A stretch of DNA of 64,000 nt from Hysterangium stoloniferum (Eukaryota; Basidiomycota; Agaricomycetes; Hysterangiales; Hysterangiaceae): NCBI GenBank assembly GCA_015178975.1, contig WHVD01000060.1, forward strand, positions 1 through 64,000, in the 5' to 3' direction. Under the pieces are notes generated by a model. That model made no database searches. It was given only the letters and a program-made list of their open reading frames with translations, and was not told where the DNA came from. A program made the position numbers and the translations under genes. Shown in pieces: positions 42,486-64,000 of this stretch (positions within the stretch are counted from its first letter, which is position 1; every line of letters starts with the position of its first letter).

Positions 42486-43029
42486 ATGTTAAGTGCCATG
42501 TTGGGAACTTATTCCGGAACTATCAGAAAGTCATTGGGAAGTCGGGAACTATCAGATAGGGTCAGGATGTCGCTTCAGCTTATGTGCTGCGCCTCTACGC
42601 AAACGCTCAAAGTCCTTAATTTCAGAAGTGAGACTTACGATGGAAGATATGGATATTCAGAGTTCCGAAGAGTTCCGAATATCGAGCATACAGAAAGACG
42701 GGAGAAGGAATAAGAAACTAAGTTGATATCAGATCTAAGATAAAGTACAAATTCGCGGAAACTAATATAAGTCTTCTTGTTATTGTACTACAAACTAAGA
42801 CCATAATAAGACGGAAATGGAAATAATCTTAAAACAGAAATACAATAAGACATATCAGGGAGACAATATTCCGAAACAGGAATATAATAAACAAACGAGT
42901 GAATACTTGTCAACGGACAAATTACCCAATGCAAAACAAGGGAAGAATGTGGAAGATACGGTAACTATGATGTTCCATAGTTGGAGATCGGAAGTCGGAT
43001 ATTGAAACATCCGGGAATGGGTCGTAACA
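42486..43029 (-). repeat. 3' LTR of element C
   Basis: 544 bp, TGTTAAGTGCC...GGTCGTAACA on the plus strand. Same length as its partner at 50014; most differences are transitions, many at CpG. Contains the shared stem-loop near 42570. Confidence 0.93.
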
Positions 43030-43209
43030 GTACCCCCCTGTTAGGCCGAAATCCCATAGAGGCAATTAGGTACTGAGTGATTGAAGCGACGGCTGATTAT
43101 TATGTGTTGTGAAATTTACGCAATTCTGGAGGTGAGAGTTTCAGCTGATGTTCTGAGTATAAAAACCTTCAAATATTTGAATTAACGTTTTTGTTTCTTC
43201 ATCCACAAC

Positions 43210-43585
43210 TTGTATGTCGATTCGTCGGCCTCTATTCATCACTACCCCAGAAGATTCAGATGCCAAAATTGCCGTGCTTCAAAAAATGTCGAAGGTCACA
43301 GAACTTCAACAAAAATGACAAAGGATGGAGGAGTTGAAGTGACAACAGGAGGAGGAGGAAAAGGCGTTGATGCAGGAGTTGAAAGATGTGGAAGAGGTGG
43401 AAAAACAGGAGTTGGAGCGAGCGAAGGCAGAAAAAGAAGCATGGATCCAGAAAACGGTGGAGGCTCAGAAAAAGAAGGAAGAGGCAGAAAGGTTACAGGG
43501 GGAGTCAGAGGTGGCGAAGAAACGTGAGGAGATAAGGGAAGGAAAGGTAAGTGCCGTCCATAGATTCCGTGGTTTCAACCAATAA
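43210..43585 (+). pseudogene. antisense reading frame of element C: coiled-coil part
   Basis: Plus-strand frames opposite to gag-pol, beginning MSIRRPLFITTPEDSDAKI just inside the 3' LTR. Further on (43367-43585) they are strongly helical and charged (VEEVEKQELERAKAEKEAWI, QKKKEEAERLQGESEVAKKR), predicting a coiled coil. Position and orientation match an accessory antisense gene described for some Agaricomycete chromoviruses only in my recollection; function unknown. Confidence 0.5.
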
Positions 43586-43774
43586 CTATTGGGTACAGCG
43601 AAAAGCCGTGGAGGTGGAGGTAGAGGGAGAGGCTGGACCTTCGAGTCCTAAAGTAAGTGCATCTACAAAAGGCCAATATTTGATTAACTTCGGAAACAGA
43701 AGCCAAAAGTCAAGGCTCCGGAATGGATGGAAGTGGTCCATGAAAATCCATGTTATTGATGTTCCATATGGAAT

Positions 43775-44248
43775 ATGACGTGTTGGAAACAGAAGGTAAA
43801 ATGGGGTGGAACTTGCTATCCCTGCATGGTTCTTAAACTTCTGTGCACTCTCGCCTCAAAATGGGTTCCAAAAGGTGAGAAGCCTCAGAAAACTAATGAC
43901 GTGGAAAGTTCGGGAGCAGCCAAAGCTGCGGAAACTGAGGTGCCAAAAACAGATAGTACGGGCATGGAGCTCCTCAAGGACACCGTTGATGCGTTAGTTT
44001 TTATCGGGATGGAAGTCATGAAAATGCGGGATACACTAGATTGCCATAATGAAATCCAGGAAAAAGGTTTCCATTTGTTGGTCCGAAACTTCCGGAGGCA
44101 AAACAAATTCCTGGAGAAGGTAATGGTTAGCATTGGTGTTATCGCAGTTTCCGAGAGATTTTCCAATAAGGCACGGGAACAACCTAATGATCCGTTGGCA
44201 GATTGTGTTGAAAAAAAGGTGGGAGTCAGGAAATGGGCCGGAAAGTGA
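43775..44248 (+). pseudogene. antisense reading frame of element C: cysteine-rich part
   Basis: A 157-codon frame with TCYPCMVLKLLC (CX2CX6C) near its start, followed by a mixed helical region (MELLKDTVDALVFIGMEVMK, LVRNFRRQNKFLEKVM). The half-motif has the spacing of one side of a Zn(II)2Cys6 cluster. The same string with different residues occurs antisense in element D (TCYECTTSKLVC), indicating conservation under selection before decay. Lies between the chromodomain and the 3' LTR. Confidence 0.55.
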
Positions 44249-44441
44249 AGATGAAGAGGTACAGGATATGGTGGAGAGTGTGGATATTGTGGATGATATG
44301 GGAGTAGAAATGGAAGGAGGATTTGGAGTGTCAGAGACTTTAAAATAGATGCAAATAAATTTGACTTGTATGATTTCAAAACGAGTGTGATATCGGGAGT
44401 AACAGAAGTGTTGGAAACTGAACAGAAAGAAAATGGAAGGG

Positions 44442-44732
44442 TCAGAGTGATGATAAAGGTCCAGGTTTGCTTGGATAAGCTGTGTGGAAATCAGTAACAA
44501 TTTCCATAGCGTGTCCGAGTTTCGTGGCCAATATCCATGAAGTTTCCTCGTCGGTACCTTCATAACCTGCCCATTTGACTAAATAGAGCAATTTACAAGT
44601 ACGTCGGCGATTGTCGATTTTAGAATCCAAAATTTCAGAAACTTCAAATTCGGGTTCTCCGTCAATGATGACCGGAGGGGACGGAGGTTGAATACATTCC
44701 GGGATTTTGTTAGGAACACAGGGTTCTAACAT
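44442..44732 (-). pseudogene. element C integrase C-terminus with chromodomain
   Basis: Contains EPEFEVSEILDSKIDNRRRT, CKLLYLVKWAGYEGTDEETS and WILATKLGHAMEIVTDFH, a canonical chromodomain with the aromatic YLVKW core. Such domains target chromoviruses to methylated histone H3 (family knowledge). Confidence 0.92.
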
Positions 44733-44794
44733 GGAAACGTGGAAGACGGGGTGAACTGCTCACATACTATCGGGAAGTCGGAGAGTCCATGAGA

Positions 44795-45469
44795 GGAGGA
44801 TATCTGAAAACTATTAAGTATACCAAATTCTAATATACTCTAAAGGTCATTTAAACATCTGGGATGTGATTCAAACATAATTTGGTTTTTAAAACTTTCA
44901 AAAAGTTTTAAACTCTCTCATACATTACAAACTAAAGAATCTTTCTGGACACGAGTAGACAATAAAAAAAATTAGTAGTTTGAAACACTAATACTTTTAA
45001 AAAGTAGATACCTTTAGATAGTCCATTCCATGCATATGTATATCATTGGCACCTCTAAATACATATGTATTACTTCGGAATAGATCTGTCAATCTGAACA
45101 GATTTCTACTTGATTCAACATACCCAGAATATATAGGGGGTTTTACTTAATAAAGACAGCTGTGGTATGAAAATTTTCCAATAATATTTTACATATTTTA
45201 CATGGAAATAACTTCATTACAACTTTTAAAAAACAAAGTACTAATAAAAGTATTAGTAGGCATCTGTAAAAGGAAGGAAATTATATACAATGGAATTTGT
45301 TAAATAACTATGGGTTGTATAAGATGTAATATGGAGAACTATTTCTGATGGTTGTTTTTTGATGATATAATTGTTTCAGAATAGATATCACTATTTAAAG
45401 ATGGAGTTTTGTAAAAATAAGACTTTTATTAGTAAATATTTGAGATTATAGTAATTATAAACACCCTCC
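44795..45469. mobile_element. MITE family F, copy 2 (675 bp)
   Basis: GGAGGATATCTGAAAACTAT...ACACCCTCC with AGA on both flanks (44792-44794, 45470-45472). It aligns along its length with 15936-16583. It is inserted in pol of element C, making it the youngest layer of this nest. Confidence 0.85.
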
Positions 45470-46745
45470 AGAGTGAACCGGCTTGTGCTATAATTTCAAA
45501 AGGGCCTAAGAATTTCTCAGCGAGTTTTTGAGAAGGTTGGGTAGTACGGAAGAATTGAGCTTTTACAAAAACCTGATCACCGATTTTAAAATTAGGAGGC
45601 GGGATCCTGTTTTTGTCCGCAGAACATTGATAATATTCCTGTGCGGAAGAAATAGCTTTCCGAAGTTCTTGATGTAATTCATCAAGGTCGGTAATAAATT
45701 CTTGAGCTCAGACAGAAGCCAAATCTCGTTCGGAATGTACAGTAAGATTCAGATTATAGCCTTTGTTGGCGAAAAAAGGAGATACACTGGTAGTTGCATT
45801 CGGAGAGTTATTGTAGGCGAATTCCGCGATCGGAAGAAGGGATTTCCAGTTGTCCTGTTGATAATTGCAATAGATGTGGAGATATTGTTCCAATGTTTGA
45901 TTTACACGTTCCATTTGTCCATCACCTTCCAGGTGATATCTTGAGGTGAAGTGTAGTTTCATGTCGAGGGCTTTTCCGAGGGCCTGGAAGAAATGGGAGA
46001 TGAACTTGGAGCCTCAATCGGAAGTTACATAAGATGGAACTCTGTGTTTGGAAAATACGTGAATAATGAAAAGTTCTGCTAATTGTAAGGATGTGATTGT
46101 ATCATGAGTGGGTATGAAAATGCGTTGTTTCGAGAATCGATCCACAACAACTAGAATGGATGTAAAGCCTTTGGAAGTTGGGAGTTGTTCGATAAAATCC
46201 ATGGAAATTGAGTTCCAGGGTTTTTCTGGTATCGGGAATAAGCAGGTGGTGCATGACTTACAGAACTGGGTTATGAAATCTCGGAGGTTGGGCCAAGTGT
46301 ATTCTCTACAGATTAAACCAAGAGTATTGTTAATGCTGTAATGTCCAGAGATCAGATGATCGTGTTTATACTGAAGTATGCGGAGTCAGAGATTGTGGGA
46401 ATCTGGAATGTAGATACGTCCATCGAGACGGATAAAACCTTGAGAGTCTTGTGACCATCAGGGTTGGTCGGGATTGTCAGGAACTTCTAGGTGTGGCTTG
46501 AGAACTGGATCGGAAGTGAGTGCGGAAAGGATATCTTGATGTAATTGCTCAATGTCCATAATCATGATGCTACGCATAATTGGATAGTAGAGGGAAGTTG
46601 CTCAAATAGATGCGGAAAGTTGTTGCATTGTAAAAACCGGTTTCAAGTTATGCGGATTAACAACGGCATAGTTACTTTCCCCCTCTTTAGGATAGACGTC
46701 CCATTGTCGAGTCATGGCATCTGGTTTTCCACCAAGACGTCTGGG

Positions 46746-47657
46746 TCAGAAACGGATAATCATGTTGCAAGCAGAAAGGAATTCGGACCAGCGGGTGAAA
46801 AGTTTAGTGGTAGAAAAATATTCAAGATTTTTGTGATCAGTAACAACATCAACAGGAGTTGCAGAACCTTTGATATAATGGTGCCAATGTTTGAAAGCTT
46901 CGAAAATTGCCAAAAGTTCTTTATCATGAACATTGTAGTTGAGTTCGGACACTTTCAGTGTCCGAGAAAGAAATGCAACTGGATGAATTTCACCGTCAGA
47001 ATCTTGAATGGAAAGAATCGCGGCAATTGCATAATTGGAAGCATCGGTTTCCACAATAATCGGAACATCAGGTTTCCAATGGGAAAGAATCGGGGCAGAA
47101 GTGAAAGCATTTTTTAAAGTCTGGAAAGTGGAGCGGCATTTGTCGTCAAAGACCCATGATTGAGTTTTATGGGTAAGACGAGTGAGTGGTACTGTAATGT
47201 CCGAGTAGTTCCGAATAAAACGACGGGAAAAGTTGGTGAAACCTAAAAATGACTGAATGTCCTTGACTTTCCATGGTTTGGGCCAGTCGCGGACAACTTG
47301 AACCTTGGTTTCATCCATACGGAGACCATCAGGTCCGATAATGAAACCTAAGTATTCAATAGAATCCATGTCAAAGTAGCATTTTTTACCGTTGGCGAAA
47401 AGACTGTTTTTACAAAGTCTTCGGAAAACTTCATGGACCTGTTCATCGTGAAGAGCGGGATCCTCGGAAAATACCAAAATGTCATCCAAATAGACTATAA
47501 CACATACGTCAAGCATGTCGGAAAATATATCATTAACAAAACATTGAAAAGCGGAAGGGGCGTTGGTAAGGCCGAACGGCATAACCAACCATTCAAAGGA
47601 TCCATAGCAAGTCCGAAAAGCAGTTTTCCATTCATCACCCTCAGCAATTCGGACCAA
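46746..47657 (-). pseudogene. element C reverse transcriptase/RNase H segment
   Basis: Longest open piece of element C (303 codons). It carries [34 protein letters not shown] (YLDD catalytic box) and YLGFIIGPDGLRMDE, then RNase H with PIIVETDASNYAIAAILSI and NVHDKELLAIFEAFKHWHHY. Typical Ty3/gypsy order. Confidence 0.95.
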
Positions 47658-50013
47658 ATGATAGGCGTGTTTGAGATCTATTTTGGTGTAGATCCGAGCT
47701 TTCCATGGGGTGTCGAGTAAATCGGTAACGAGTGGAAGTGGATACTTATCTTTCCGTGTGATGGAATTTAATCCTCTGAAATCTACACAGAGTCAAAGGG
47801 AGCCATCCTTCTTTCTGACGAAAAGGACGGGTGCTCCATATGGAGACTTTGAGGGATGGATAAACCTATTGACAGATGTTCATCCAGGAACTCCCGAATA
47901 GACGAAAGTTCCAATTGGGATAATGGGTAAATAGGTCCTAACGGAGGGTTTGAACCAGGCTCCATATCGATTTTTAAGTCGTAGGGCCTATGTGGTGCAA
48001 GCCGGTCAGCTTTTTGCTTACTGAAAATGTCCACGAAATCATGGTATTTTTCGGGAACTCCTTCCAGGTCGGCTTTTAGCTCGGATAATTCTGGAGTTGC
48101 AAAACATCCAGATGCTTCATCAACTTTTAAGCTGATTGAAAAACACTGTGAGCCATCCAGTTTACTTGCCCTAACAAATGCCGAAGCATTGATGAGAGAA
48201 ATTTTTGGAGGTACAGAGGTTTCGGTAGAAGCTGGAGATGCCGCTGATGCCGAAAAGGCGTTGGGTGGAAGAGATGCTGCAGGAGGAACCAAAGTGTCGG
48301 GAATTCAGAAATTAATACTGCCCAATACCCAGTCAATCAATGGATTATATCAGGTGAGCCAGTTGTATCCAAGAACTACCGAACTGCTAGAGTCCAACTG
48401 TGTTACGAAAAAAGTAACCATCTGGGATGTTCCACAAGGGAACCGGATAGACATGTCGCAGGCTTGGGTAATTGCCATATTGCTAGTGCCGTCAAACAAA
48501 TGCAAGGAAATTGTGGGAACAGAATGGAGTTTCAGATTATGTTTCATGGCAAAGGGTGGTATCTACAAAACAGTGTGTGGAGCCAGAATCTATCAGAGCT
48601 TGGAACACTAAATTTCCAAGAAAGTCAGCCACAAGTTTTACAAATAATGAATCGGGATTAGAGAGAGCGGACACATTGAGATGGATAACCTCAGAAACAC
48701 AGAGAGAGTCAACGCAACCCTCTGTCCGTGCAGATTCCAGAGGGTTGCTTACTCTTTTTTCGGCTCCGTGGCAGGTTTTTCCTTGGATGTTGTAGTCGTA
48801 ATGGAAGTTGCCGCGTGGGCCTTGTAAGAGTTAGATTTAACGGTACAGTCGGAAACCTTGTGTCCGCCTTTCCCACAGAAAAGGCAGAGGTCGTTGTCCA
48901 TACGTCGTTGTTTCTCCTTCAGGGTGAGTTTACCGTCGGTACCCAACAAATGGGAAATGTCGTGTTTGTCGGAAGTTGACTGTTTTTCCTTGTTGGATTT
49001 CTTGTCTTTCTTCCGGTTGGAGTTTGATTTGCCAGTAGTAGTGCCAGAGTTGCCGGTGTTATTGCCTGAGTTGTTGCCGGAAGACTTGCTAGTCGACGCC
49101 TTGTGATTCTGAGAACATTCCGTCGGGTTCTCTCGAGAGACCTTGGCTTTTCATTCCCAATAACGGGCATCGGATGTTTGAGCTTTAATCCGCATGAGTT
49201 GGAGAGTTTTAGGCTTCCCATCTTTGCAGATCTCGTCTTTAAGGTGTGACGGAAGTCCCATATAGAAATGGTGCCTGAGGGCGGAATCATCCCATCCACA
49301 TCGTGCGGCGAGGGTATTGAACTTGACGAGATAATTGGAAACTCATTGATTGTCCTTCATCTTGAGCATCATCAATTCATTTTCCGCTTCGCCGGATTGA
49401 TCGTAAGGTCCGAAATTAGTTTCCAGTTCTTCCACAAAAGTATCCCAGTCATCGAGCCATACGGGTGTCTCGTCAGATATTCCAGATAGTCTGGGTTCAA
49501 ACCAATCTTGAGCGGTATCCTTGAGATAAGAGAGTGTGAATTTGACTTTTCAACTGTCAGATTTAAATGCAGTGGGTTGATCACGGAAACTGAAAACGGC
49601 ATTGGAGAAGGAAATTCTTCAATTTTTTTGGATCCTTGCCGGTAAATGGTTCAGGTTCTTTGACTCCGGTGCGGGATGATTCTTTACTATCCTCAGCGGA
49701 TTTCAAGTAGTCAGGGAATTTCACAATGGAGTTGATAAACAACATTTCAGTCGGTTCGTCGGAAGTTTTCTTTTTCAATGTCTCCGGTTGATCTTCTGCT
49801 TCGTTGTCGGAAGTGTGGGGAATATTGGTGTCCCTCGTTACCTTGGTAACCTCCTCGGTAACTTCTTTGACTGAAGCTGATGTTGTCGGCTGAATTGGGG
49901 TTTCGAGTTGAGTGGTGTAAAGTTGCAACGGGGATTGGAGTTGGGATGGTCCTTTGGCAGCTTTGTGTTTGGGACCCATGATGAGCGAGTCGCAGAGTTG
50001 AGATCTGATATAC

Positions 50014-50557
50014 TGTTAAGTGCCATGTCGGGAACTTATTCCAGAACTATCGGAAAGTCACCGGGAAGTCGGGAACTATCGGATAGGGTCAGGATGACGG
50101 CTTCAGCTTATGTGCTGTGCCTCTACACAAACGCTCAAAGTCCTTAATTTCAGAAGTGAGACTTACAATGGAAGATATGGATATTCAGAGTTCTGAAGAG
50201 TTCCGAATATCGAGCATACAGAAAGATGGGAGAAGGAATAAGAAACTAAGTTGATATCAGATCTAAGGTAAAGTACAAATTCACGGAAAGTAATATAAGT
50301 CTTCTCGTTATTGTACTACAAACTAAGACCATAATAAGACGGAAATGGAAATAATCTTAAAATGGAAATACAATAAGACATATCAGGGAGACAATATTCC
50401 GAAATGGGAATATAATAAACAAACGAGTGAATACTTGTCAACAGACAAATTACCAAATGCGGAACAAGGGAAGAATGCGGAAGATATGGTAACTATGATG
50501 TTCCATAGTCGGAGATCGGAAGTCGGATATTGAAACATCTGGGAACGGGTCGTAACA
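50014..50557 (-). repeat. 5' LTR of element C
   Basis: 544 bp; gag begins only about 34 bases inside it on the minus strand. Contains the stem-loop near 50098. Confidence 0.93.
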
Positions 50558-51183: not shown

Positions 51184-52500
51184 TACTCTCTGACTTCAAG
51201 TTCTTCAACATAAGCATGACCACCCAATCTCGGGACATTTCAGACTGAATAAAACTCTCACACTCATTTGTAGAGACTATACATGGCCTGGACTCTGAGA
51301 TTTCACTAAGCATTATTGTAAATCTTGCACAACCTGCTTACACTCCAAATCACAGCATTACAAACTGTATGGCTTACTCAAACAATTACTGATACTGGGA
51401 AAACCATGGAACTCCATATCAATGGATTTCATTGAACATCTACTGGCACCCAAAGGTCATACCAGTCCTAGTTGTTGTGGATTGGCTTTCCAAGCAAAGT
51501 ACTTTCATTCCCACCTATGACACAATCACATCCATACAGTTGGCAGAATTATTTGTCACACATATTTTCCAAGCACAGAATTCCATCACATGTCACATCT
51601 GATCGTGGATCCAAGTTCATCTCTCACTTCTTTAGGTCACTCGGAAAAGCACTTGACATGAAACTTCATTTTACCTCAGGTTATCACCTGGAAGGTGATG
51701 GACAAACTGAATGAACAAATCAAACATTGGAACAATACATCCACATCTATTGTAACTATCAACAGGATAATTGGAAATTACTACTACCACTTGCCAAATT
51801 TGCTTATAACAACACCCTGAATGCCACTACTGGCATTTCACCTTTCTTTGCAAATAAAGGCTACAACCCCAATATTGCTATCCACCTGGAATGTGACCTC
51901 AATTTGGCCTGAGCTCAAGACTTTGTCACAAACCTCAATGAGCTTCATCAGGAACTCTGAAAGAACATCACATCAGCTCAAGAACAGTATCAACATTCCA
52001 CAGACAAGAATCTGCTCCCACCTCCTAACTACAAGATCAGGGACTGAGTCTTTGTAAAAGCTGAGTTCTTCTGAACTACTAGACCGTCCAAAAAGCTTGC
52101 TGAAAAGTAATTAGCTCCTTTTGAGATTATAGCACAAGCCGGAACAGTGTCATGGCCCCTTCAGCTCCCCAACAGCATGCAAGTAGTACACCCGGTCTTC
52201 CATGTTTCTATGTTAGAACCCCATGTTGCTAACACTATACCAGACCACATACAACTCCCTCCACCACCTATCATTATTGATGGAGAACCTGAGTTTGAAA
52301 TATCAGAAATCCTTGATTTAAAAATTGAAAATCACAGATGTTCTTGCAAACTTCTCTATTTGGTCAAATGGACTGGTTATGAAGGCACAGATGAAGAAAC
52401 TTTGTGGATCCTTGCCACGGAACTCAGAAATGCCTCAGAATTGGTCATAGATTTTCATCAAGTGTACCTGAACAAACCTAGGCCTTTGAATTCCCTCTGA
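51184..52500 (+). pseudogene. element D integrase core and chromodomain
   Basis: Contains IPVLVVVDWLSKQSTFIPTY (core strand), SKFISHFFRSLGKALDMKLH, TSGYHLEGDGQTE and NWKLLLPLAKFAYNN, followed by the chromodomain EPEFEISEILDLKIENHRCS, CKLLYLVKWTGYEGTDEETL. Close relative of element C in the same region. The first part of the integrase lies before the LTR A insertion at 41598. Confidence 0.88.
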
Positions 52501-52599
52501 ACCCCCCAGAATCCCATCCCCTTCTGACCTTTTTTTTGCTGCCACCTCATTCTTGAAGTCACATTTATGTTTTTGTTTCCCAACACTTTCTGAATAAAA

Positions 52600-53150
52600 T
52601 CAATGATCTTCTTAAAATAACTAATTACAAAGTTTCATCCCCCCCTTGGTAATCTCCTGCACCTTGGACCCCAGTACAACCTGAGAACCATTGACTTCTG
52701 ATGCACTCTCCATCTCTTCAACCTCCATATCCCACAAGTTCCACTCACTGGCCTTCATGTCTAAATATGGTTGGAATTGGGCCCTCATATGACCCAACTC
52801 CTCTCAGACCCCACAGATCTCCAACACAAGGAGTCAGGAGTCCTGTAACTGTGCCAGTTTGGACACCTTGTGCAGATGGTTCTGCTCTTCAAGGGCCTCA
52901 GCAAGCCACTCAATCAGAGTGTTGGAAACCCTGTCAGACCCCAGCCAATGACACACCAACTTGGATGTTGTGCACTCATAACAAGTATGCCCCTGACCCT
53001 TTTGCTTGTGGCACAGTTGTTTGTGTGCAGTATACCTATTGTACTTTGGACTATTCTCAGACCCTGTTTTGATGGCCCATGTTTGTTGTCAAAAGTTAGA
53101 CAATTGGCATGCCAAACAATTCATTCTTACCTTTGGGCTAGGAGACCTCA
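52600..53150 (-). pseudogene. antisense cysteine-rich frame of element D
   Basis: On the minus strand downstream of the chromodomain: CLACQLS, then QLCHKQKGQGHTCYECTTSK and LVCHWLGS, followed by a helical segment (IEWLAEALEEQNHLHKVSKL, LDMKASEWNLWDMEVEEME). It has the same location, orientation and CX2CX6C core as the antisense frame of element C. Damaged. Confidence 0.55.
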
Positions 53151-53215
53151 CCTCATCCTCCTCTTTGGAGTCCAAAGGACTCTTTGCTTTCCACTGGTAC
53201 AGTAATTGTTAGATG

Positions 53216-53323
53216 TTTCAGAAACCGAGCCAAACAATTACTCACTTTTTGTAAGCAGCTGATCTGAAGACAGCTTTGGTGTAAGCCTGGTGGCTTATGA
53301 CATACCAATTACATTATCACAGA
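53216..53323. other. end of element D and short dispersed repeat
   Basis: Includes GTAAGCCTGGTGGCTTATGA and following bases (53280-53322), a copy of the segment at 11817-11860. It abuts the Ngaro terminal repeat. Confidence 0.55.
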
Positions 53324-53500
53324 TAGTATTGAGTGCCACACAATCCCTGCATGCCAGGAGTAGTTCAGCACTCAATGTCCAGCCGAGCATATGAAGGAGT
53401 CACACACCTTTTGTTTCCTACAACATCTCTGTCAGTACAGTATCCGAGAATTTTGCATCCTTTCACAGATTATTGTTCCTTAATTCTTTCTTTTATTTCA
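53324..53500 (+). repeat. Ngaro split direct repeat A1
   Basis: 177 bp from TAGTATTGAGTGCCACACAA to TTCTTTCTTTTATTTCA. Matches A2 with about ten differences. Confidence 0.88.
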
Positions 53501-54149
53501 CTGCTCACTTATGATATATGGAGCCTTACCACAAGGGGTATTTGTGCACTTAGGTATATATCTGAATAGTGAGACAAACCCACCCCCACAGAGGCAGATG
53601 CAGAAACTGCCCCAGTGGAGGGGAATCTGGCTCTGGATCCTTCATCATTACCACTATCAAGGGAGGCTGGCACCAACTGGGAGGCATGAAGGTGAGGCAA
53701 ACACCCACCCTCTTCTGAGATTGAGCTATTGTATGCACACATAGCCCAGCTGATGGCACACGAGCATAATCTAGCAAATTATGTTAGCTCTGGTGATCAT
53801 GAAGGAGGAATCACAGCAGAGGCAGCACCAATTGTAACCAGGTTATTCCTTGACCCAGATGCACTACGATGGGCCAGGAGCATGCCTTCACTAGCCGAGG
53901 AGCCCTGAGGCAGCAGGAAGGCACCAATTCCCAAGACTATCCCAGGTTTAAGGCCAACCCTCTAGAGATCCATAAGTGCACCCTTTCTTTATCGCACAGA
54001 TGGATGGCTGGTACAAATGGGTTTTCACATGTGGACAGTCCAGATAGTCCAACAGCATTGCAGAATGCATGTCACAGTTCACAGACAGTTCAGTGGCATT
54101 GCATAATGCATGTCATATGTCACAACAGTTGGATAGCATTATGGAATGC
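53501..54149 (+). other. Ngaro internal region, no recognisable domain
   Basis: Overlapping short frames on both strands, none recognisable. A degenerate GCATTRTRGAATGC-type reiteration precedes the LTR C insertion (54050-54150), one unit of which supplied the AATGC target. Confidence 0.4.
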
Positions 54150-54712
54150 TGTTAAGTGCCGTGTCGGGAACTTATTCCGGAACTATCGGGAAGTCACCGG
54201 GAAGTCGGAAACTCGTGGATAGGGTCAGGACGTCGGCTTCAGCTTATGTGCTGCGCCTCTACGCAAACGCTCAATGTCCTTAATTTCGGAAGTGAACTAA
54301 CGACGGAAGATATGGATATTCAGAGTTCCGAAGAGTTCCGAATATCGAGCATACAGAAAGACGGGAGGAGGAATAAGAAACTAAGTCGATATCAGATCTA
54401 AAGTAAAGTACAAATTCACGGAAACTAATATAAGTCTACTCGTTATTGTACTACAAACTGAGACCATCATAAGACGGAAACGGAAGTGTTCTTAAAACGG
54501 AAATACAATAAGACATATTAGGAAGACAATATTCCGAGACGGGAATACAACAACAAACGAGTGAATACTTGTCAACGGACAAATTACCAAATGCGGAACA
54601 AACGAAGAACGCGGATGATACGGTAACTATGATGTTCCGTAGTCGGATATCGGATATCGAAGGTGGGAGATCGGAAGTCGGATATTGAAACATCCGGGAA
54701 CGGGTCGTAACA
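54150..54712 (-). mobile_element. solo LTR family C
   Basis: 563 bp, TGTTAAGTGCC...GGTCGTAACA, perfect duplication AATGC (54145-54149, 54713-54717). Close to the LTRs of element C but retains more CpG sites and has a small extra reiteration (GGATATCGGATATCG) near its end, so it comes from a separate, less decayed insertion. Confidence 0.95.
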
Positions 54713-55320
54713 AATGCATGCCATGCAACTTGACAGCTGGATTCTGTGGTGTCTACGCAATCATCATGCTCATACTTCCCCCCCTTTTTTTCAGCAATTC
54801 CTCACAAGGTGGAGGAAGCCTTTAAGAACCTTCACTATGTTCCTTATATCTCCCTCACCACTGAAGTGTGATGAAGAGCAGAGAAGGGGGCAGAGGAGTT
54901 TTCAATTTCACCATCTGGCAGCATCATTGCGAGAGAGCTGGATCATGAGAATGAGAAGGGCATCAGTATAATTGACTGGTTGGCAGCAGCAGTGGCAGCA
55001 GCTGACCACACTAGAGCCCATGGTGATATCCAATGAGCCAATGCATTAGTCGCTCACCATGTTAGACATCAATTGTGAAGTCACATAGCTGGGAAGTTGC
55101 TATGGACTACAATGTTCAACAATGTGAGGCAACTGCCCACAACTTGGCTCACAACTTGGGCTGATTAGATGCCAAGGTGCTGACGATTATATCAACCTGA
55201 ACAGCACTACAGTCAGCAAAGGTGTTCCACACCTCAATGGCACCACCCCCAAGTGCTCATGGCTGGCAGAGTCCCCCCTCCCAGCCAGATCACCGTGCAA
55301 GAGACCACACACTGACAGAG

Positions 55321-55590
55321 ACTCCTCACATTGTTTTCAATGTGGAGTCAAAGGTCATCTACCCACTGACTGCAAGTCGAAGTGTACAATGGCAGGAAAG
55401 AACCTTGCCTCAATTTCACAAGGAGCCAAAAATAAACATGCTCTTGCTGCCCCTGATGGTAAACAATTTTGCTTCTGCTGGGCACTCAAGTCTCAGTGCA
55501 GGTGGGGCAACAACTGTGTCAACAATCATACATGTAGCATCTGCTTCGAGGATAACCATGGAGCAGGAGCCTGTAGAAAGCTCTGACCTG
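55321..55590 (+). pseudogene. Ngaro zinc-knuckle (gag-like) region
   Basis: HCFQCGVKGHLPTDCKSKC is a CX2CX4HX4C knuckle. It is followed by FCFCWALKSQCRWGNNCVN and HTCSICFEDNHGAGAC, a second cysteine/histidine cluster. Nucleic-acid binding is expected. This arrangement is common upstream of RT in Agaricomycete YR retroelements (family knowledge). Confidence 0.6.
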
Positions 55591-55973
55591 AGGCAGCACA
55601 GCACATATAATGAGTAAATATGGTATATTGCAGGACTGGCAGAATATTATAGCAGGTTTGGATAATGGATTTGACATTGGGCTGAAGGAGCACATATCAT
55701 GTACAGCCATTTGTTGAAAATCATAGATTTCCTTAGTGGACACAGAATGTATAACCAAGTATATAGCAAGTGAACAGAAGATTGGTCACTACTCAAGGGG
55801 TTTTATGCCAGAGGAGCTGGAGCATGCCATAGGACCATTTCAGACATCTCCCCTGGGACTGATCCTGAAGCCAAATTTGAGCACATACCACATGATACAA
55901 GACCTATCATTTAACCAACACATTCCTCCATAAACAGTCGCCTAAATCCTGACAACTTCCTGACAGAGTGGGG

Positions 55974-56284
55974 TGTTAAAAATTGCAACTAATATTGTCT
56001 CAGTCTCGTATTAGGGTATAACGGACTAAGTATATATACCTAATATTGTCTAATACAGACTGTCAATACGACAATAAGGAATATTATCTAAAGCAAACTC
56101 ACCTCAGTCTCGTATTAGGGTATAATGGACTGAGGTGTAAATGGCGTTGCCATATAGTTTAAATACCGTGCAATGAATATGTGGAACAAAGGGGTGACGT
56201 GTCCTTTCGTGTATCTTTGATCGCGTGTTCTAAAAATAGATGCCGATCGTCAAATCCGTTGTTCGTGGTGTATACATTCCAACA
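55974..56284 (-). repeat. 3' LTR of copia element 2
   Basis: 311 bp; contains a CTCAGTCTCGTATTAGGGTA block repeated twice about 120 bp apart. About 98-99 per cent identical to the 5' LTR by eye. Confidence 0.95.
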
Positions 56285-56364
56285 CTCCTCCTCAGCAAGA
56301 ACAAACGTTAATGGTCTCCTCCTTAGCGAAAACATCGTGTGCTCCTCCTCGCATGGAAATCGAG

Positions 56365-58782
56365 TTAGATGAGACCAAGGAAGGGGCGAAGACGGGAAAA
56401 TTTTGAGGTGTCTAGGGCCTTTGTGAAGATATCAGCGAGGTTATCTTTGGTGTTGACATAGTTTAAGGTAAAGTCTCCCACTAAGACACGCTCCCTAAGA
56501 AAATAATATTTGATATCGATGTGTTTGACCCGAGAATGTAAAAGTGGGTCCTCGGAAAGTGCAATGGCGGCATTGTTGTCACAAAGGAGAGTCGTAGGAG
56601 CCGAGGGAGGAAATTGGAGGCCTGTAAATAATGTGCGAAGCCAACTGCCTTCCTTGGCAGCCTCAAATGCGGCAACATATTCAGCCTCACAGGAGGACGC
56701 TGCAACCGTTTTTTGTTTTCTAGAAGTCCAAGAAATAACACCGGAACCCAAGGTGAAGGCATAACCACTTATGCTGCGACGAGTGTCGAGACAATTGGCC
56801 CAGTCGGAGTCGGTGTACCCTAGCAGGTTGATTGCATTGGTACCTCCCAGGTGTAAATGAAGTCCTCGGGTGCCTTTTAAATAATGCACGACGCGAATGG
56901 CAGCGTGCCAGTGGGGCATGGAATAATAGTCAAGGTATTGAGAGAGTTGTTGGATGGCATAGGAAATATCGGGACGGGTTGAGATGGCTAGATAAAGTAG
57001 ACAACCCACTAGAGATCTGTAGGGAAGTTTCAACAGAGCATCGAGTTCAGTAGTGGAAGAAGTTGCGCGATTGCTGTGTCGAAGCTTTGAATTATAGTCC
57101 ATGGGTGTGGATGCAATGGAAGCATTGGTTTGGCCAAATTGTCGAATAATCTTGTCAATAAGGGCAATTTGGGATAAATAAACAGATTTGTTGGGACGGT
57201 CCCACTCGACAGCAATACCAACGACAAAACGCACATTCCCAAGGTCAGAGATAGTCCAGACCTTGCTCATCTGTTCCTTGAAAAGCTTATTTTCTGCAGG
57301 AGAACTTGCAATGGAGAGAAAATCGTCAACATGAACAGCCGCTATTATGATCCCAGTAGAAGTTTTGCGGTAATAGATGCATGATTCACAGTCAAGTCTT
57401 GTAAAACCCCAGGAAATCATTTGTTCATTCATCGTTTGATTCCATATGTGTCCACTCTGTTTCATGCCATAAATACCGCGCATCAACATCCATACCCAAT
57501 CCTCTTTGCCAGGCTCTTCAAAACCGGTTGGTTGTTCCATATACTGCGTCTCATTCTCGGGGAGTATACCGTATAGGAATGCTGTCTTGATATCGATCTG
57601 CTGAGCATCCCATCCTAGGGTAGCAGCGATATGTAGCAAGATCCTCCAAGATTCCATGCGTGCTGTTGGTGAGCTTGTTTTGTTATAATCTTTGCCATAG
57701 ATTTGTTCAAAACCTTTGAAAACCAGGCGTACTTTCCATTGGGTCACCTTGCCTGTCTCATCCCGTTTAATTCGAAAGACAGGTCGACCTTTGCGTATCT
57801 TACAGCCTTGTGGGACATCAGATCGGGGGACTAACTTGTAGACCCCCATGGCTTTGAGAGAAGCAAGTTCATCAAGATAACCCTTTCGCCAATGAGCTGC
57901 ATCGGCAGAGTTGAGGGCTTCCTCCCAAGACTTGGGTTCGTCATTACATGTTAGGGGATCGATGCCTGTGACTGATTCGATGGTAGCGTCGGCCCCAAAG
58001 AGGCCATATTCTTGCGGTAACATGGATAATACATGATCAATATCCTCATTATTGGGTGGATCATGGGATGTGTTTGACTGCGATTGGTGGAGTTCATGTA
58101 GGGTATGCAGACGTTGTTGCTTTGCGAGATGTAAACGTTCCGCACTTTCTTGAGAGGCTAGGATAGCACGTTGAAGGCGTGAGCCCGGTTCAATATGTCG
58201 TTCTGCAATACGATTGGAACGACGAACAGGTGCTTCGGGATTTGGTTGGTTGTTGATTAAAGGGGGGCCGTCATTTTGTGGTGCAGGTCCTACTGGATGA
58301 TTTATACTGGGTGGTATAGATGGTGCTATAATACTATCATCGAGAGGGTTCGGAATGACGATGTTATCTGGTGTAGATAAGGTAGAGGTGATTGGGGAAG
58401 GTACTGGCAGGTCTTGGTGTGTACACATTGATTCTGGACGGGGGTGTCCCTCATGGCTTTCCAAAAAACGTATGTGATATGAACTGTATATTTGATGAGT
58501 TTTAGGGTTGTAACATCGGTATGATCTTGATTTCGCATCGTAACCAACCAAAATACATTCAATTGAACGTTTGAAGATTTTTGGATTAGATCGGTTTTGG
58601 ATGAGTACGAAAGCTTTGCATCCAATTTCCCTCATATAGGAGTAATCAGGAATGCGGCCATACCAAAGCTCCCAAGGAGTTTTGCCATTAAGAGAGTTGG
58701 TGGTGGTCTTAACATGAAGATGAGCCACAGTTAGGTAGAGTTCGTCCCATAAGTATGTTGGTAAATTAGCGTATATACGCAT
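56365..58782 (-). pseudogene. copia 2 pol: integrase end, reverse transcriptase, RNase H
   Basis: One uninterrupted 805-codon frame. The integrase C-terminal region runs from IYANLPTYLWDELYLTVAHL. A long linker has the APVRRSNRIAERH motif. RT is about residues 330-560 (KVRLVFKGFEQIYGKDYNKT, QQIDIKTAFLYGILPE, MKQSGHIWNQTM, and AAVHVDDFLSIA with the VDD catalytic box). RNase H is about 655-800 (LLGYTDSDWANCLDTRRSIS, ASSCEAEYVAAFEAAKEGSW, LHSRVKHIDIKYYFLRERV). Full-length for the family in this part. Confidence 0.95.
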
Positions 58783-58785
58783 TGA

Positions 58786-59631
58786 TCAAGCTTTTCCCAT
58801 AAGGGTTCTATGCATACGTTCCACTCGTCCAATGTGGGCTGATGTGTATGGTGCCATAAATTGCTGATCAGTTCCTCTGGATGATAGCCAATTCGACATT
58901 TCGCAGCTTTTGAGTTCCCCGTTATCAGTGCGGTATATTCCGACTTTCAGCCCTGTTTCAACTTCCCTAGCTTGCTCCCATATCCGAAGTTGAGGAAAGG
59001 CATCACTTTTAGCTTTCAATAATATAGTCCAAACAAAACTTGTATAGTCGTCAACTATATTCATGACGTAGTTATTTCCAGTTCGTGAAGTTATAGCCTG
59101 TGGTCCTGAGAGATCTATCCAAACTTTTTCTAATCTCCTTGTCGCCTTATGCCCCAACCCACTTTCACGTATTTTTGGAACTGAAGATTTTGTCTGTTTT
59201 CCAAGAATGCATGAATCGCATTTCCAGGGAGCTGAAGTGGGGGAGGATTGCGCACCTTTTAGGAGACCGCTTTTGAACATGTCGTTAATAGATTTATAGT
59301 TCGCATGTCCAAGGCGGCGGTGCCAAGTGTCGAGGGTAGGCATATTTTGAGTGATAAGTGCGTGCTCTGCGAGTGTGGAGTGGAGAGATAGCGTGTAGAG
59401 ATTTTTGTGGGGGAGTAATGAGCCACGAGCTATTATAGCGTTAGATGATTTTGTACTGAGCCAACATGATTGATCATCGAAGTGTGCGATGATATTGGAA
59501 TCTCGGGTTAAGCAACAAACTGATATGAGACGCACTGTGGCGTCTGGTATGTAGAGTACGTCTCGGAGTATGATGGATGTTCCACGGCCTATACACATTT
59601 TGATGTCACCAATACCAACATGATTGATCAT
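58786..59631 (-). pseudogene. copia 2 pre-integrase and integrase core
   Basis: Contains TLDTWHRRLGHANYKSINDM (GAG_pre-integrase His motif), CDSCILGKQTKSSVPK (zinc finger end), KVWIDLSGPQAITSRTGNN, YRTDNGELKSCEM and APYTSAHIGRVERMHRTLM. These give the Asp and Glu positions of the DDE core of copia integrase. Confidence 0.92.
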
Positions 59632-60204
59632 CGAAGTGTGCGATGATATTGGAATCTCGGGTTAAGCAACGAACTGATATGAGATGCACTGTGGCGTCTG
59701 GTATGTAGAGTACGTCTCGGAGTATGATGGATGTTCCACGGCCTATACGCATTTTGATGTCACCAATACCAATGGCCCAGATAAGAGAATTTCCTAATCC
59801 CCTTGCGGAACGAGGGGTAATGGCTCTTAAAGTAAAAAAATCAGTTTGGTCTGGTGATATGTGTATGGTGGCACCAGTGTCCAGCCAGAAGGGGTAGATT
59901 TCGGTGGAAATTGGGGTACGTTTCGATTGTGACAGTGGTTGAACGGTTGATGTGTTCAATGCTGTAGGGTGCGTGTGGCTGTTCTTGGTCCAATTGACGG
60001 TAGTCTTCAACTCCTCCTCAAGGACAAGCCAACCTTCGTACTCGATCTGTTCTAGCACAAGAGGGGAAGACAATGCTCGGTCAGGAGCGGGGGAGACATG
60101 TCCCGCAAAGTCAGTGGAGGCAGGGTTTGGGGTAGATAATTCGGAAGTGTCCATTTGAGCGATGTAAATACGACCATCGGCCCCTTGGATACGCACAGGA
60201 ATCT

Positions 60205-61134
60205 TCATTGTAGGGGTTGATGCTGGAGTAGTGGAGGTAGAGGGAGAATGTATGGTCCTCGATGATTTAGCCCCCGGCTCTGTTGCCTGGCCAGCTTCGA
60301 CTCTTCAATAGTCTTGCCCGCCATTCCACCGCCTGGTGCAATACAGTAGTCAACTGTATGGCGGTGCTTTTTGCAATTGGAACAAACGATTGAAGTGTTG
60401 GGTTTGGATACGGCGGCGAGAGCGATGGAGTCACCCACATTGGAATTTTTGTTACTAACTGGGGTCATAAGAGCTTGTTCACTGTCTAAGTAGGAACGTA
60501 GTTGGGTAGAGGTGAACGGATTGGACTTAGTGGATTGAGTAATATCGCGGGTGATGATAGAACGGAGATGTTGGAAGTCGGTGCCCAAAGCATTGAGAAG
60601 GGCAATGCATTTAAAGAGGTCGCGGGAAATTTCGCCCATATTGTAAGCACGGTCAATCATAGTGCAGATGGTTTCGGCTGTTGTGGGTAGAGGTGTGCTG
60701 CGGGAAAATTGAGCAAGTAGGGCATTTTGCAGTAATTGGACCTGTCAGATGGGTCCCTCACTCTTGTGGCGAAGTTGTAAAGTATCCCAACAGGCCTTCG
60801 CCCCAAGGTCCAGGTCAATGTACTCCCATTCTGAGGCCTCAAGGGTGGATGCAATAAGAGCTGCAGCGAGGGAGTTATTACTTTCCCAGTTGGCCCGAGC
60901 GCAAGGGCAGTCGAGACCTGGCTGAGGGATAAGTCCCTTGGCATAGCCTTGGAAGCCGGTAAGAGTGAGAAATAAAGTTGCAGAACGAAGCCATGGTTGG
61001 TAGTTGGACTGGAGTTTGTCTAGCTTTGGTCCAGAGTAAACGATGTTGGTGCGGAGTGCTGTGATGGATGGAGCAAGGTCATCCGTAGAGGTTGTTATAG
61101 AGGAAGCCATGTGGGATGGAGAATGGGATTGCAA
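60205..61134 (-). pseudogene. copia 2 gag
   Basis: Begins near 61134/61110 (MASSITTSTDDLAPSITALR), with KLDKLQSNYQPWLRSATLFL (copia gag N-terminus, substituting for the usual N-x-W motif) and ACWDTLQLRHKSEGPI. It continues with the RSYLDSEQALM and CCHC-like CSNCKKHRHTVDYC regions, in two frames. Confidence 0.85.
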
Positions 61135-61190
61135 TTTTTAATTCGTCACAAGTATAGTCAGCTTATACAGATGAGTCGGGGCCCATAACC

Positions 61191-61501
61191 TGTTAAAAAT
61201 TGCAACTAATATTGTCTCAGTCTCGTATTAGGGTATAACGGACTAAGTATATATACCTAATATTGTCTAATACAGACTGTCAATACGACAATAAGGAATA
61301 TTATCTAAAGCAAACTCACCTCAGTCTCGTATTAGGGTATAACGGACTGAGGTGTAAATGGCGTTGCCATATAGTTTAAATACCGTGCAATGAATATGTG
61401 GAACAAAGGGGTGATGTGTCCTTTCGTGTATCTTTGATCGCGTGTTCTAAAAATAGATGCTGATCGTCGAATCCGTTGTTCGTGGTGTATACATTCCAAC
61501 A
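61191..61501 (-). repeat. 5' LTR of copia element 2
   Basis: 311 bp, followed on the minus strand by the half-initiator-tRNA primer complement (61178-61190). Confidence 0.95.
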
Positions 61502-61644
61502 TGGGGTACCTTTGCAGACATGGCAGCATTGATATTATCTTTACCAGAAGGTTCCATGCCTGCCAGCTTTGACATTTCCGCAGCTTACCATATGACACCC
61601 ATATGACCAGATCAGCAGAATTCATGCTGCATTTTATGGGATGG

Positions 61645-62390
61645 TGTTAAGAACTGAAAACTGACTAATGTCGGTAGGCCGATGGGGACCGATCAGAAGG
61701 ACTTGGCTTCAGCTTATGTGCTGCACCCTCACAATTATCCATCAGGTGTCCTTAAATTTCGGACAGGCAAAGACTAGTCCTAATGAATTCCTCTCAGCGA
61801 GTGACCGATTGGGACCAAAGGATGATTCAAGTGTCGGGCCAAGGGGTCGGAAACTGAGAGTGGGCGAGCGCATGCAAAGGCAGATAGTGGAGTACTTAGT
61901 ATGAGGCTTCCAGAGGTGTAAGAGGGTATTCTGAGTCGATATTCTGATTGCCTAGTAACTACAACTACAGCGGGTTCATATACAAATATTCAGTGTCTAG
62001 AAAATACTAACTAGGAGAAGAGCAGAAAACAGTATTGACAAATAAGCTTGACTAGGAATGGGAAGGTTACGATTAGTTCGGAGGCTGTGAGATAACCGAG
62101 AGCGGGATTATGAGAAAAGGAAATAGTCCAAGGGTTACAAGTATATACATATAGACATATGTGAAACATAGAGTAGAATGGATCATCATAATAAAAAGGG
62201 ACATATCAGAGTTTAACCAGATAGTACAAGTATATTTTGACGGGGGCGTGAACAGAGTTTGATCACTGTGAAGGCATACGTCAGCATCGGGAAGCCGATG
62301 GTTTCCGATGTGAGGACTTGAACAATGACTTGAATCGTCGATAGGTGGTGATAACCTTGGGGACCGTCGGGTTGCGACACGGTCGTAACA
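61645..62390 (-). mobile_element. solo LTR family B
   Basis: 746 bp, TGTTAAGAACTG...GGTCGTAACA, perfect duplication GATGG (61640-61644, 62391-62395). Inserted in the Ngaro relic. Confidence 0.95.
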
Positions 62391-62395
62391 GATGG

Positions 62396-62640
62396 CCTGG
62401 TATATGTTGACCAGATAAAAGCTGCACTCAAATGAATAAACCTCATTCTTAATGCATAGGGGTGGGGAACAGCCTTCAGACATTCATTTCATATCGGCAG
62501 CACATCTTTCTTTCTAGAACAGGGAGTCGCTCCTGAAATCATGAGATTAGCAGGCAGATGGAAGTCATTAGCATATGAGATGTACATCAGGGCCTTTGAA
62601 CAGGTAGCATCACAGCATTTGGAGAACCTTTCAACCAGGA
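62396..62640 (+). pseudogene. Ngaro tyrosine recombinase C-terminal piece
   Basis: SFHIGSTSFFLEQGVAPEIM, RLAGRWKSLAYEMYIRAFEQ, VASQHLENL. This matches the HxxR...G(R/H)...Y end of tyrosine recombinases found in DIRS/Ngaro elements (family knowledge). Only the last helices remain. Confidence 0.65.
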
Positions 62641-62709
62641 ATATAACTGCCTAAGGTTGGGTAGGCTGCATAGCTTGCCATGTTTGATAGGCAGCTGTTC
62701 TTTTGTGGG

Positions 62710-62808
62710 TGAGCAGTGAGCCTTCCCACACATACACAGAGAGCTAAGCTCTCCCCCTACCCAACAATACAGTTCTTTGCTCTGAGCAGGACACATAGAC
62801 AAAGCTAG
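62710..62808 (+). repeat. Ngaro split direct repeat B1
   Basis: Contains GAGCTAAGCTCTCCCCCTAC and GACACATAGACAAAGCTAGA; lies immediately before A2. Matches B2 at about 63858-63960. Confidence 0.8.
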
Positions 62809-62809
62809 A

Positions 62810-63731
62810 TAGTATTGAGTGCCACACAATCCCTGCATGCTGGGAGTAGTTCAGCACTCAATGTCCAGCCAAGCAGATGAAGGAGTCACATGTCTTTTGT
62901 TTCTGTTAAGAACTGAAAACTGACTAATGTCGGTAGGCCGATGGGGACCGATCGGAAGGACTTGGCTTCAGCTTATGTGCTGCACCCTCACAAGTTACTG
63001 TCAGGTGTCCTTAAATTTTGGGCAGGCAAAGACTAGCCCTGTTGTATTCCTCATGGTGGGTTACCAATCGGAACTGAAGGATAAGTTGAGTGTTGGGCCA
63101 AGGGGTCAGGGACTGAGAGTGGGCAAGCACACGCAAAGGCAGAGAGTGGCATACTTAGAGTAAGACTTCTAGAGATGTATGTGGGTGTTCTGAGTTGATA
63201 TTCTGATTGCCTAGTAACTACAACTACAGTGGGTTCATATACAGGTTATTGGTGTCTAGAAAATACTAACTAAGGGAAGAGTGGAAACACTATTGACAAA
63301 TAAACTTGACTAGGAATGGGAAGGTTATGATAAGTTCAGAGGCTGTGGTTAACTGAGAGCAGGATTACAAGAAAAGGAAATAGTTCAATGGTTACAAGTA
63401 TATATGGGCATATGTGAAACATAAAGTAGAACAGGTCAACATAATAAAAAGGGGACATATCAAAGTATAATCAGATAGTATGAGTACATTTTGACAGGGG
63501 TGTAAATGGGGTTTGACCACCGTGAAGGTACACATCAGTGTCGGGCAGCCAATGTTTCCGATGTGAGAAACTGATTAGTAACTAGAATTGTCATAACCTC
63601 GGGAACTGTCAGTTTGTGACAGGGTTGTGACACACTCGTAACAGTTTCCTATGACATCTCTGTCAGTACAGTATCTGAGAATTTCACATCCTTTCACAGA
63701 TTATTGTTCCTCAATTCTTTCTTTTATTTCA
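62810..63731 (+). repeat. Ngaro split direct repeat A2, interrupted by LTR B
   Basis: Pieces 62810-62903 and 63649-63731 together match A1 (53324-53500) end to end. Confidence 0.88.
62904..63643 (-). mobile_element. solo LTR family B
   Basis: 740 bp, TGTTAAGAACTG...ACTCGTAACA, perfect duplication GTTTC (62899-62903, 63644-63648). It has lost more CpG than the copy at 61645 and is probably older. Confidence 0.95.
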
Positions 63732-64000
63732 TCCACCCACCCTTCCCTCATATTGAGGATTTGGGTTAATTCAATTAATCAATTTTATTATTTGTTGGAT
63801 GTTTAATCTATGGATAAATGAGAGTGAGAGTTGTACTGCAAGAGAGGACCCACCCTCCTGAGTGGCAAGTCTTCTCCCACATACATACATGGAGAGCCAA
63901 GCTCTCCCCCTACCCAACCATACAGCTCTTTCCTCTGAACAGGACACAGACAAAGCTGGAGACACATAGTATCATTTTTAGTTAATCATTTTACTTACCA
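63732..64000 (+). repeat. Ngaro 3' end with repeat B2; window edge
   Basis: B2 at about 63858-63960 (GAGCCAAGCTCTCCCCCTAC ... GACACAGACAAAGCTGGA). The 125 bp between A2 and B2 has no counterpart next to B1, so it may be an extra insertion or the true A2 end. Past 63962 nothing is recognisable before the window ends. Confidence 0.65.

What the first reader, a model, noticed from the sequence alone, without database searches (positions are those of the whole stretch)
53324..63962. A Ngaro-type retroelement, recognisable only after removing four nested insertions
The A1...B1-A2-B2 repeat order (53324-53500; 62710-62808; 62810-62903 with 63649-63731; 63858-63960) is the hallmark of Ngaro elements. 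A zinc-knuckle region, an RT piece and a tyrosine-recombinase tail lie between. Four insertions, each with a perfect 5-bp duplication (AATGC, TGGGG, GATGG, GTTTC), stretch about 3 kb of element over 10.6 kb. A single-pass repeat finder would very likely miss it.
Basis: partly seen in the sequence, partly recalled or inferred. Interest (0 to 1): 0.75.

Follow-up and report, generated by a model that had tools for sequence, protein, structure and literature searches.

The report
Dead Ngaro-type retrotransposon, four nested insertions

Summary
Repeat A (180 bp) lies at 53321-53500 and again at 62807-62903 plus 63649-63731, with 13 of 180 differences. Repeat B lies at about 62724-62806 and 63875-63957 (longer, 62710-62809 and 63859-63960, under laxer scoring). 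The order is A1...B1-A2-B2, and B1 meets A2 exactly or with a three-base overlap. Four insertions (563, 5528, 746 and 740 bp), each TG...CA with an exact 5-bp duplication, interrupt a 3040-bp element. The second is a Copia element; the others look like solo LTRs. A zinc knuckle and a tyrosine-recombinase tail lie between the repeats in the expected order. The tail scores above 1000 of 1000 shuffles against a Cre-family profile. The RT pieces rest on motifs recalled from memory and found no database support. The copy is dead: stop codons, a missing middle, a lost catalytic arginine, and CpG observed/expected 0.11 against 0.36-1.67 in the inserts. PAT-like elements share the repeat plan; Ngaro is preferred from published fungal distribution, but the host was not identified. 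No genome was held, so the multi-copy test could not be run. One loose end: an 11-bp inverted repeat at the inner edges of A1 and B1.

The parts
53321..53500 (+). Repeat A1, 180 bp, left end of the element
   Evidence: 13 of 180 differences from A2, no other copy in the window
53720..53905 (+). Remnant of a possible Gag-like frame
   Evidence: 62 codons without a stop; coordinates; no Pfam match; Gag assignment by position only
54150..54712 (+). Insertion 1: apparent solo LTR, 563 bp, TG...CA, duplication AATGC; 87-88% like LTRs near 42488-43028 and 50015-50556
55281..55583 (+). Cysteine-rich zinc-knuckle frame (CX2CX4HX4C and further Cys/His groups)
   Evidence: Pfam zf-CCHC E 0.017, below its cut-off
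55727..55930 (+). Putative N-terminal RT piece, between stop codons
   Evidence: motif assignment recalled, no database hit
55974..61501 (-). Insertion 2: Copia LTR retrotransposon, 5528 bp, 311-bp LTRs with 4 differences, duplication TGGGG; coding strand minus; polyprotein in several broken frames
   Evidence: RVT_2, SH3_retrovirus, gag_pre-integrs, Pol_BBD, and rve below its cut-off
61502..61603 (+). Putative RT piece with a D-x3-A-Y motif like a catalytic-aspartate region
   Evidence: 53 of 500 shuffles score as well against the window's Gypsy-like RT, so unproven
61645..62390 (+). Insertion 3: apparent solo LTR, 746 bp, TG...CA, duplication GATGG
62460..62651 (+). C-terminal tail of a tyrosine recombinase (His, Trp and Tyr positions kept; HxxR arginine lost)
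62724..62806 (+). Repeat B1 (strict limits; 62710-62809 under laxer scoring)
62807..62903 (+). Repeat A2, first part
62904..63643 (+). Insertion 4: apparent solo LTR, 740 bp, inside A2, TG...CA, duplication GTTTC; 82% like insertion 3
63649..63731 (+). Repeat A2, second part
63875..63957 (+). Repeat B2, right end of the element (strict limits; 63859-63960 under laxer scoring)
53498..53508 (+). Left arm of an 11-bp inverted repeat, overlapping the end of A1 by three bases
   Evidence: the arm occurs once in the window
62709..62719 (-). Right arm of the 11-bp inverted repeat, just before B1 (strict limits) or at its start (lax limits)
   Evidence: the arm occurs once in the window

Best explanation
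The element at 53321 to about 63957 is a dead, internally deleted Ngaro-type tyrosine-recombinase retrotransposon. In the model for this group (details recalled; PMC6681497 confirms only annealing between repeats), the element is transcribed and reverse-transcribed, the internal B1-A2 joint acts as a splint that brings the B2 end and the A1 end together into a circle, and the tyrosine recombinase inserts the circle. Afterwards four LTR elements landed in this copy: one Copia element and three that survive as single LTRs. Shown by the sequence: the repeat plan, the close B1-A2 joint, the recombinase tail and the four later insertions. Inferred: the splint, the circle and the recombinase step. 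Also inferred: CpG loss with CA in one A copy facing TG in the other means that the copy was methylated and then decayed.
For: Order A1...B1-A2-B2 with E 3e-24 to 6e-37 and no stray copies in the window. A2 starts at 62807 under three scorings; B1 ends at 62806 or 62809, so the joint is exact or overlaps by three bases. A and B pairs are similarly diverged (13 of 180; 7 of 81; p 0.80). The recombinase tail scores 13.1 bits against a nine-sequence Cre-family profile, above 1000 of 1000 shuffles (best 4.2), and is the best of 1593 six-frame pieces of the window (E 0.003, next 3.4); hhalign E 5e-5, probability 68%. Four exact 5-bp duplications; CpG observed/expected 0.11 in the element (0.00-0.15 in its five pieces) against 1.67, 0.81, 0.84 and 0.36 in insertions 1-4.
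Against: No database match supports the RT pieces, and comparison with the window's own Gypsy-like RT was not better than shuffles (276, 251, 53 and 181 of 500 scored as well). No relative was returned from viral contigs or genome contigs (one search reported one relative but gave no locus). Pfam alone does not recognise the recombinase tail. A spacer of 127 to 143 bp separates A2 from B2, which the texts I saw do not mention. RNase H and most of the recombinase are absent. The host is not identified.
Confidence: 0.88

Rival explanations
1. A PAT-like element of the DIRS group: same A1...B1-A2-B2 repeat plan and a zinc-finger Gag, with a methyltransferase that was lost in the deletion.
For: PAT elements have split direct repeats, Pat1-like ones a zinc finger, and Ngaro differs from them mainly by lacking a methyltransferase domain (PMC4157794, passages); the part that would carry it is missing here.
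Against: PMC3783388 (named sections) reports fungal DIRS elements only in early-branching fungi and Ngaro in Basidiomycota. The host is not identified, so this is weak.
Confidence: 0.08
2. Unrelated repeats and coding fragments that happen to lie together in a repeat-rich region.
For: The region is rich in mobile-element remains, and RT is unproven.
Against: Close B1-A2 joint, similar age of the A and B pairs, one strand and one order, and low CpG in each of the five element pieces (observed/expected 0.13, 0.12, 0.15, 0.08, 0.00). The left flank is as low (0.08), so CpG alone does not separate element from flank.
Confidence: 0.03
3. A non-autonomous, deleted Ngaro family that spread after the deletion, rather than a single copy deleted in place (a variant of the best explanation, not an alternative to it).
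For: The copy is about 3 kb against about 6 kb for the Ngaro elements in PMC8547959.
Against: No second copy in the 64 kb; the source genome could not be searched.
Confidence: 0.15

Closest known systems
Ngaro retrotransposons of Basidiomycota (PMC3783388)
   Same: A-pol-B-A-B repeat order; tyrosine recombinase instead of DDE integrase; that paper too calls most identified copies incomplete
   Different: This copy lacks the end of RT, RNase H and most of the recombinase; has a 127-143-bp A2-B2 spacer; placement in one of the four fungal Ngaro groups was not possible; no sequence of theirs was compared
Ngaro elements of Cafeteria burkhardae (PMC8547959)
   Same: A1-[ORFs]-B1A2B2; copies with deletions and nesting with other mobile elements reported there
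   Different: About 6 kb there, 3.04 kb here; their deletions cover ORF1, this one RT to recombinase; no sequence compared
PAT-like elements (PMC4157794)
   Same: Split direct repeats; zinc-finger Gag in Pat1-like ones
   Different: Methyltransferase domain expected; that region is missing here, so untested

Membership tests
Ngaro retrotransposon | Split direct repeats in the order A1...B1-A2-B2 | tested here: met
Ngaro retrotransposon | Tyrosine recombinase on the same strand, upstream of B1 | tested here: met
   Tail only. HxxR arginine lost, Trp and Tyr kept
Ngaro retrotransposon | Reverse transcriptase | tested here: inconclusive
   Motifs recognised from memory; no hit in Pfam, PHROGs or PDB sequences; not better than shuffles
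Ngaro retrotransposon | RNase H | tested here: not met
   None recognised in the surviving pieces; inferred to lie in the missing part of this copy
Ngaro retrotransposon | No methyltransferase (separates it from PAT) | tested here: inconclusive
   None seen in the surviving pieces, but the relevant region is missing
Ngaro retrotransposon | No target-site duplication of the element itself (feature recalled) | tested here: inconclusive
   No exact duplication of 3-8 bp for B2 ends at 63955-63961 and 63963; a 3-bp CAC appears if B2 ends at 63962, within chance
Ngaro retrotransposon | Several copies with the same repeats in the genome | not testable with these tools
   No genome held; no second copy in the window
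PAT-like retrotransposon | Methyltransferase domain | tested here: inconclusive
   None seen in the surviving pieces; region missing
Copia (insertion 2) | LTR pair, RVT_2, gag_pre-integrase and integrase core, 5-bp duplication | tested here: met
   the integrase core match (26.7 bits) is below its cut-off of 32.6

The most novel reading that the evidence does not exclude
The 11-bp inverted repeat at the inner edges of A1 (53498-53508) and B1 (62709-62719) is functional. In the RNA it would close the internal region into a panhandle and hold A1 next to the B1-A2 splint: a cis-acting part of the Ngaro replication cycle that I did not find described (no paper in the held library has both Ngaro and panhandle; the six papers with Ngaro, split direct repeats and inverted repeat were seen only as a listing, or as passages or one section for three of them).
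Probability: 0.05. Interest if true: 0.45.

Novelty: new member of a known kind. Interest (0 to 1): 0.2.

Why it matters
It shows that a split-direct-repeat element can be recognised through four nested insertions from sequence alone, and that the layers can be ranked by CpG loss. Biologically it adds one fossil copy to a known group. It would matter more only if intact relatives show the inner inverted repeat or settle the family.

Tried and rejected
Searches for relatives by protein piece in viral contigs and genome contigs gave no locus. Degenerate DNA patterns for RT and recombinase motifs gave 0 matches (in viral contigs, the RT pattern only, in genome contigs). Pfam gave nothing for the RT pieces and, for the recombinase tail, only one chance hit below its cut-off (ABHD16_N, E 0.16; nothing); PHROGs gave nothing; PDB sequences nothing for RT. 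The PDB sequence search with the recombinase piece gave six unrelated hits, best E 0.16. An AlphaFold2 model of the 64-residue tail from a single sequence (mean pLDDT 78.5, pTM 0.45) gave a hairpin and one long helix; I did not use it for a fold search. tblastn of the tail in phages gave no match. The RT piece in phages gave one match at E 4 in an unannotated record, ignored. No tRNA and no Rfam family at the gathering threshold in the window. Considered and rejected: an LTR element as the outer element (no 5-bp duplication, repeats split); a DIRS1-like element (no inverted repeats of 30 bp or more in 52500-64000).

The recombinase profile: one search listed 40 of 1282 records; I fetched 8 of those 40, plus the Vibrio protein itself, 9 sequences in all. 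They were chosen for spread before being scored against the tail. The Vibrio protein was the tail's own weak hit (E 6), so the profile is not wholly independent of the query. The zinc-knuckle and RT pieces were run as further controls and were not among the six best rows printed.

Mended on checking: the right end of B1 was set by the end of the stretch that I gave, so the exact B1-A2 joint was partly imposed, without that limit, gives an exact joint or a three-base overlap by scoring. The Fisher test (p 0.62) used a wrong total; one search gives p 0.80.
Full report
What was checked. The finding claims a Ngaro-type element with repeats A1...B1-A2-B2, coding remnants between, and four nested insertions. 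The parts were looked for in the raw sequence with repeat finding, blastn of each piece against the whole window and pairwise alignment.

Repeats. A1 is 53321-53500. A2 is 62807-62903 plus 63649-63731, interrupted by insertion 4. These limits are the same under three scorings. The two copies differ at 13 of 180 positions, 12 of them transitions. Neither repeat has another copy in the window at E 0.01. So B1 either ends at the base before A2 begins or overlaps its first three bases. Both fit the family model, in which B1-A2 copies the joined ends of the element (recalled), and a short overlap would be expected if the recombinase crosses over at a short shared core (recalled). The A and B pairs are similarly diverged (13 of 180 and 7 of 81, Fisher p 0.80; the lax 13 of 98 was not tested). 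[quoted passage not shown]

Insertions. Each begins TGTTAA, ends in CA and is flanked by an exact 5-bp duplication whose sixth base differs: 54150-54712 (AATGC), 55974-61501 (TGGGG), 61645-62390 (GATGG), 62904-63643 (GTTTC). Insertion 2 is a Copia element on the minus strand: RVT_2 E 4e-51, SH3_retrovirus E 3e-21, gag_pre-integrs E 2e-14, Pol_BBD E 2e-16, rve E 7e-6 (below its cut-off). Its 311-bp LTRs differ at 4 positions. The other three look like single LTRs. Insertion 1 is 87-88% like two sequences at 42488-43028 and 50015-50556. Insertions 3 and 4 are 82% alike, and a relative of insertion 3 (89%) lies at 41720-42460. Without insertions and with one copy of each duplication the element is 3040 bp with the strict B2 end (lengths summed, not joined).

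Coding remnants, in order along the + strand. A possible Gag stretch has no Pfam match. A cysteine-rich frame at 55281-55583 has a CCHC knuckle (Pfam zf-CCHC E 0.017, 15.6 bits against a cut-off of 20.8). Two pieces read like RT: one before insertion 2, one directly after it. That reading is from memory. Pfam, PHROGs and PDB sequence searches found nothing for them. Against two Gypsy-like frames of the same window, 276, 251, 53 and 181 of 500 shuffles scored as well. After insertion 3 the frame passes within about 70 bases, with two stop codons, from an RT-like stretch into the recombinase tail. So the rest of RT, RNase H and most of the recombinase appear to be missing.

Recombinase tail. tblastn in 72,556 plasmid records gave two records, both annotated as tyrosine-type recombinase, but at E 6. 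The Vibrio protein (Pfam Phage_integrase E 1e-12) aligns over 41 residues at 39% identity. I built a profile from nine recombinases, one of them Cre by PDB sequence match. His289, Arg292, Trp315 and Tyr324 of Cre are among the 18 invariant columns; that they are catalytic is recalled. The tail matches with hhalign at E 5e-5, probability 68%, and with hmmsearch at 13.1 bits, above 1000 of 1000 shuffles (best 4.2). It is the best of 1593 six-frame pieces of 25 residues or more in the window (E 0.003; next E 3.4). The His, Trp and Tyr positions are kept, Tyr across a one-residue gap. The HxxR arginine is a histidine, so the enzyme was probably inactive at the end.

Decay and chronology. CpG observed/expected is 0.11 in the element (17 seen, 158 expected), 0.08 in 1.3 kb of left flank, and 1.67, 0.81, 0.84 and 0.36 in insertions 1 to 4. 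In the five element pieces it is 0.13, 0.12, 0.15, 0.08 and 0.00. Of the 13 differences between A1 and A2, 8 make up four dinucleotides with CA in one copy and TG in the other, and 2 more are single CpG losses. Adjacent differences are commoner than chance (5 adjacent pairs, permutation P 0.0005). Independent decay of methylated CpG in both copies would explain this. Read as a clock, the element and its flank are oldest, then insertion 4, then 3 and 2, with 1 youngest. Families may start with different CpG content, so this order is inferred. The few LTR differences of the Copia element (4 of 311) agree that it is younger than the element.

Family. Tested and met: repeat order, and a recombinase tail on the same strand upstream of B1. 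Inconclusive: RT, absence of a methyltransferase, and absence of a duplication of the element's own ends (none at most choices of the B2 end, 3 bp at one). Not met in this copy: RNase H, presumably in the missing part. PMC4157794 (passages) gives PAT the same kind of repeats plus a methyltransferase. PMC3783388 (abstract, introduction, first part of the results, Ngaro characterisation, discussion) places fungal Ngaro in Basidiomycota, apart from one ascomycete remnant, and fungal DIRS in early-branching lineages, and says that most copies are incomplete. The host of this window was not identified; a basidiomycete is a guess from that distribution and partly circular. PMC8547959 (one section and passages) describes Ngaro elements of about 6 kb, deleted copies, and nesting with other elements.

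Loose end. An 11-bp inverted repeat lies at 53498-53508 and 62709-62719, at the inner edges of A1 and B1; each arm occurs once in the window. None of 3000 draws of random pairs of places in 52000-63900 (pairs closer than 100 bases skipped) had one as long. It was noticed after the fact, other pairs of edges could have been remarked on, and no relative is at hand to test it.

What could not be done. The rebuilding of the uninterrupted element was left out (see referred steps); nothing in the verdict depends on it.

Noticed in passing
59461-59768: A 154-bp tandem duplication, 98% identical, inside the Copia insertion; it lies where two overlapping frames match Pol_BBD.
   Followed up: partly
42487-50557: Probable full Gypsy-type element: its two LTRs are 94.5% alike over 542 bp, with RT and RNase H on the minus strand between; the flanking 5-mers GAGTA and GAGTG differ at one base. 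The Gypsy name is inferred.
   Followed up: partly
41720-42460: Another apparent solo LTR of the insertion-3 family, flanked by CAGGC on both sides.
   Followed up: partly
53498-53508 and 62709-62719: 11-bp inverted repeat at the inner edges of A1 and B1.
   Followed up: partly
1-64000: CpG content alternates sharply along the window (observed/expected 0.16 to 0.88 in 4-kb blocks), perhaps marking old and young inserted DNA.
   Followed up: partly
63958-63975: The right flank (GGAGACACATAGTAT) resembles the start of A (AGATAGTAT) with a 4-base gap; this may reflect target choice by the recombinase, or chance. Seen by eye.
   Followed up: no
61170-61195: The stretch next to the Copia 5' LTR reads GGTTATGGGCCC on the minus strand, which I recall as the Drosophila copia type of primer site.
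   Followed up: no
23240-23362: A 62-bp tandem duplication at the start of a minus-strand LTR of the insertion-3 family.
   Followed up: no
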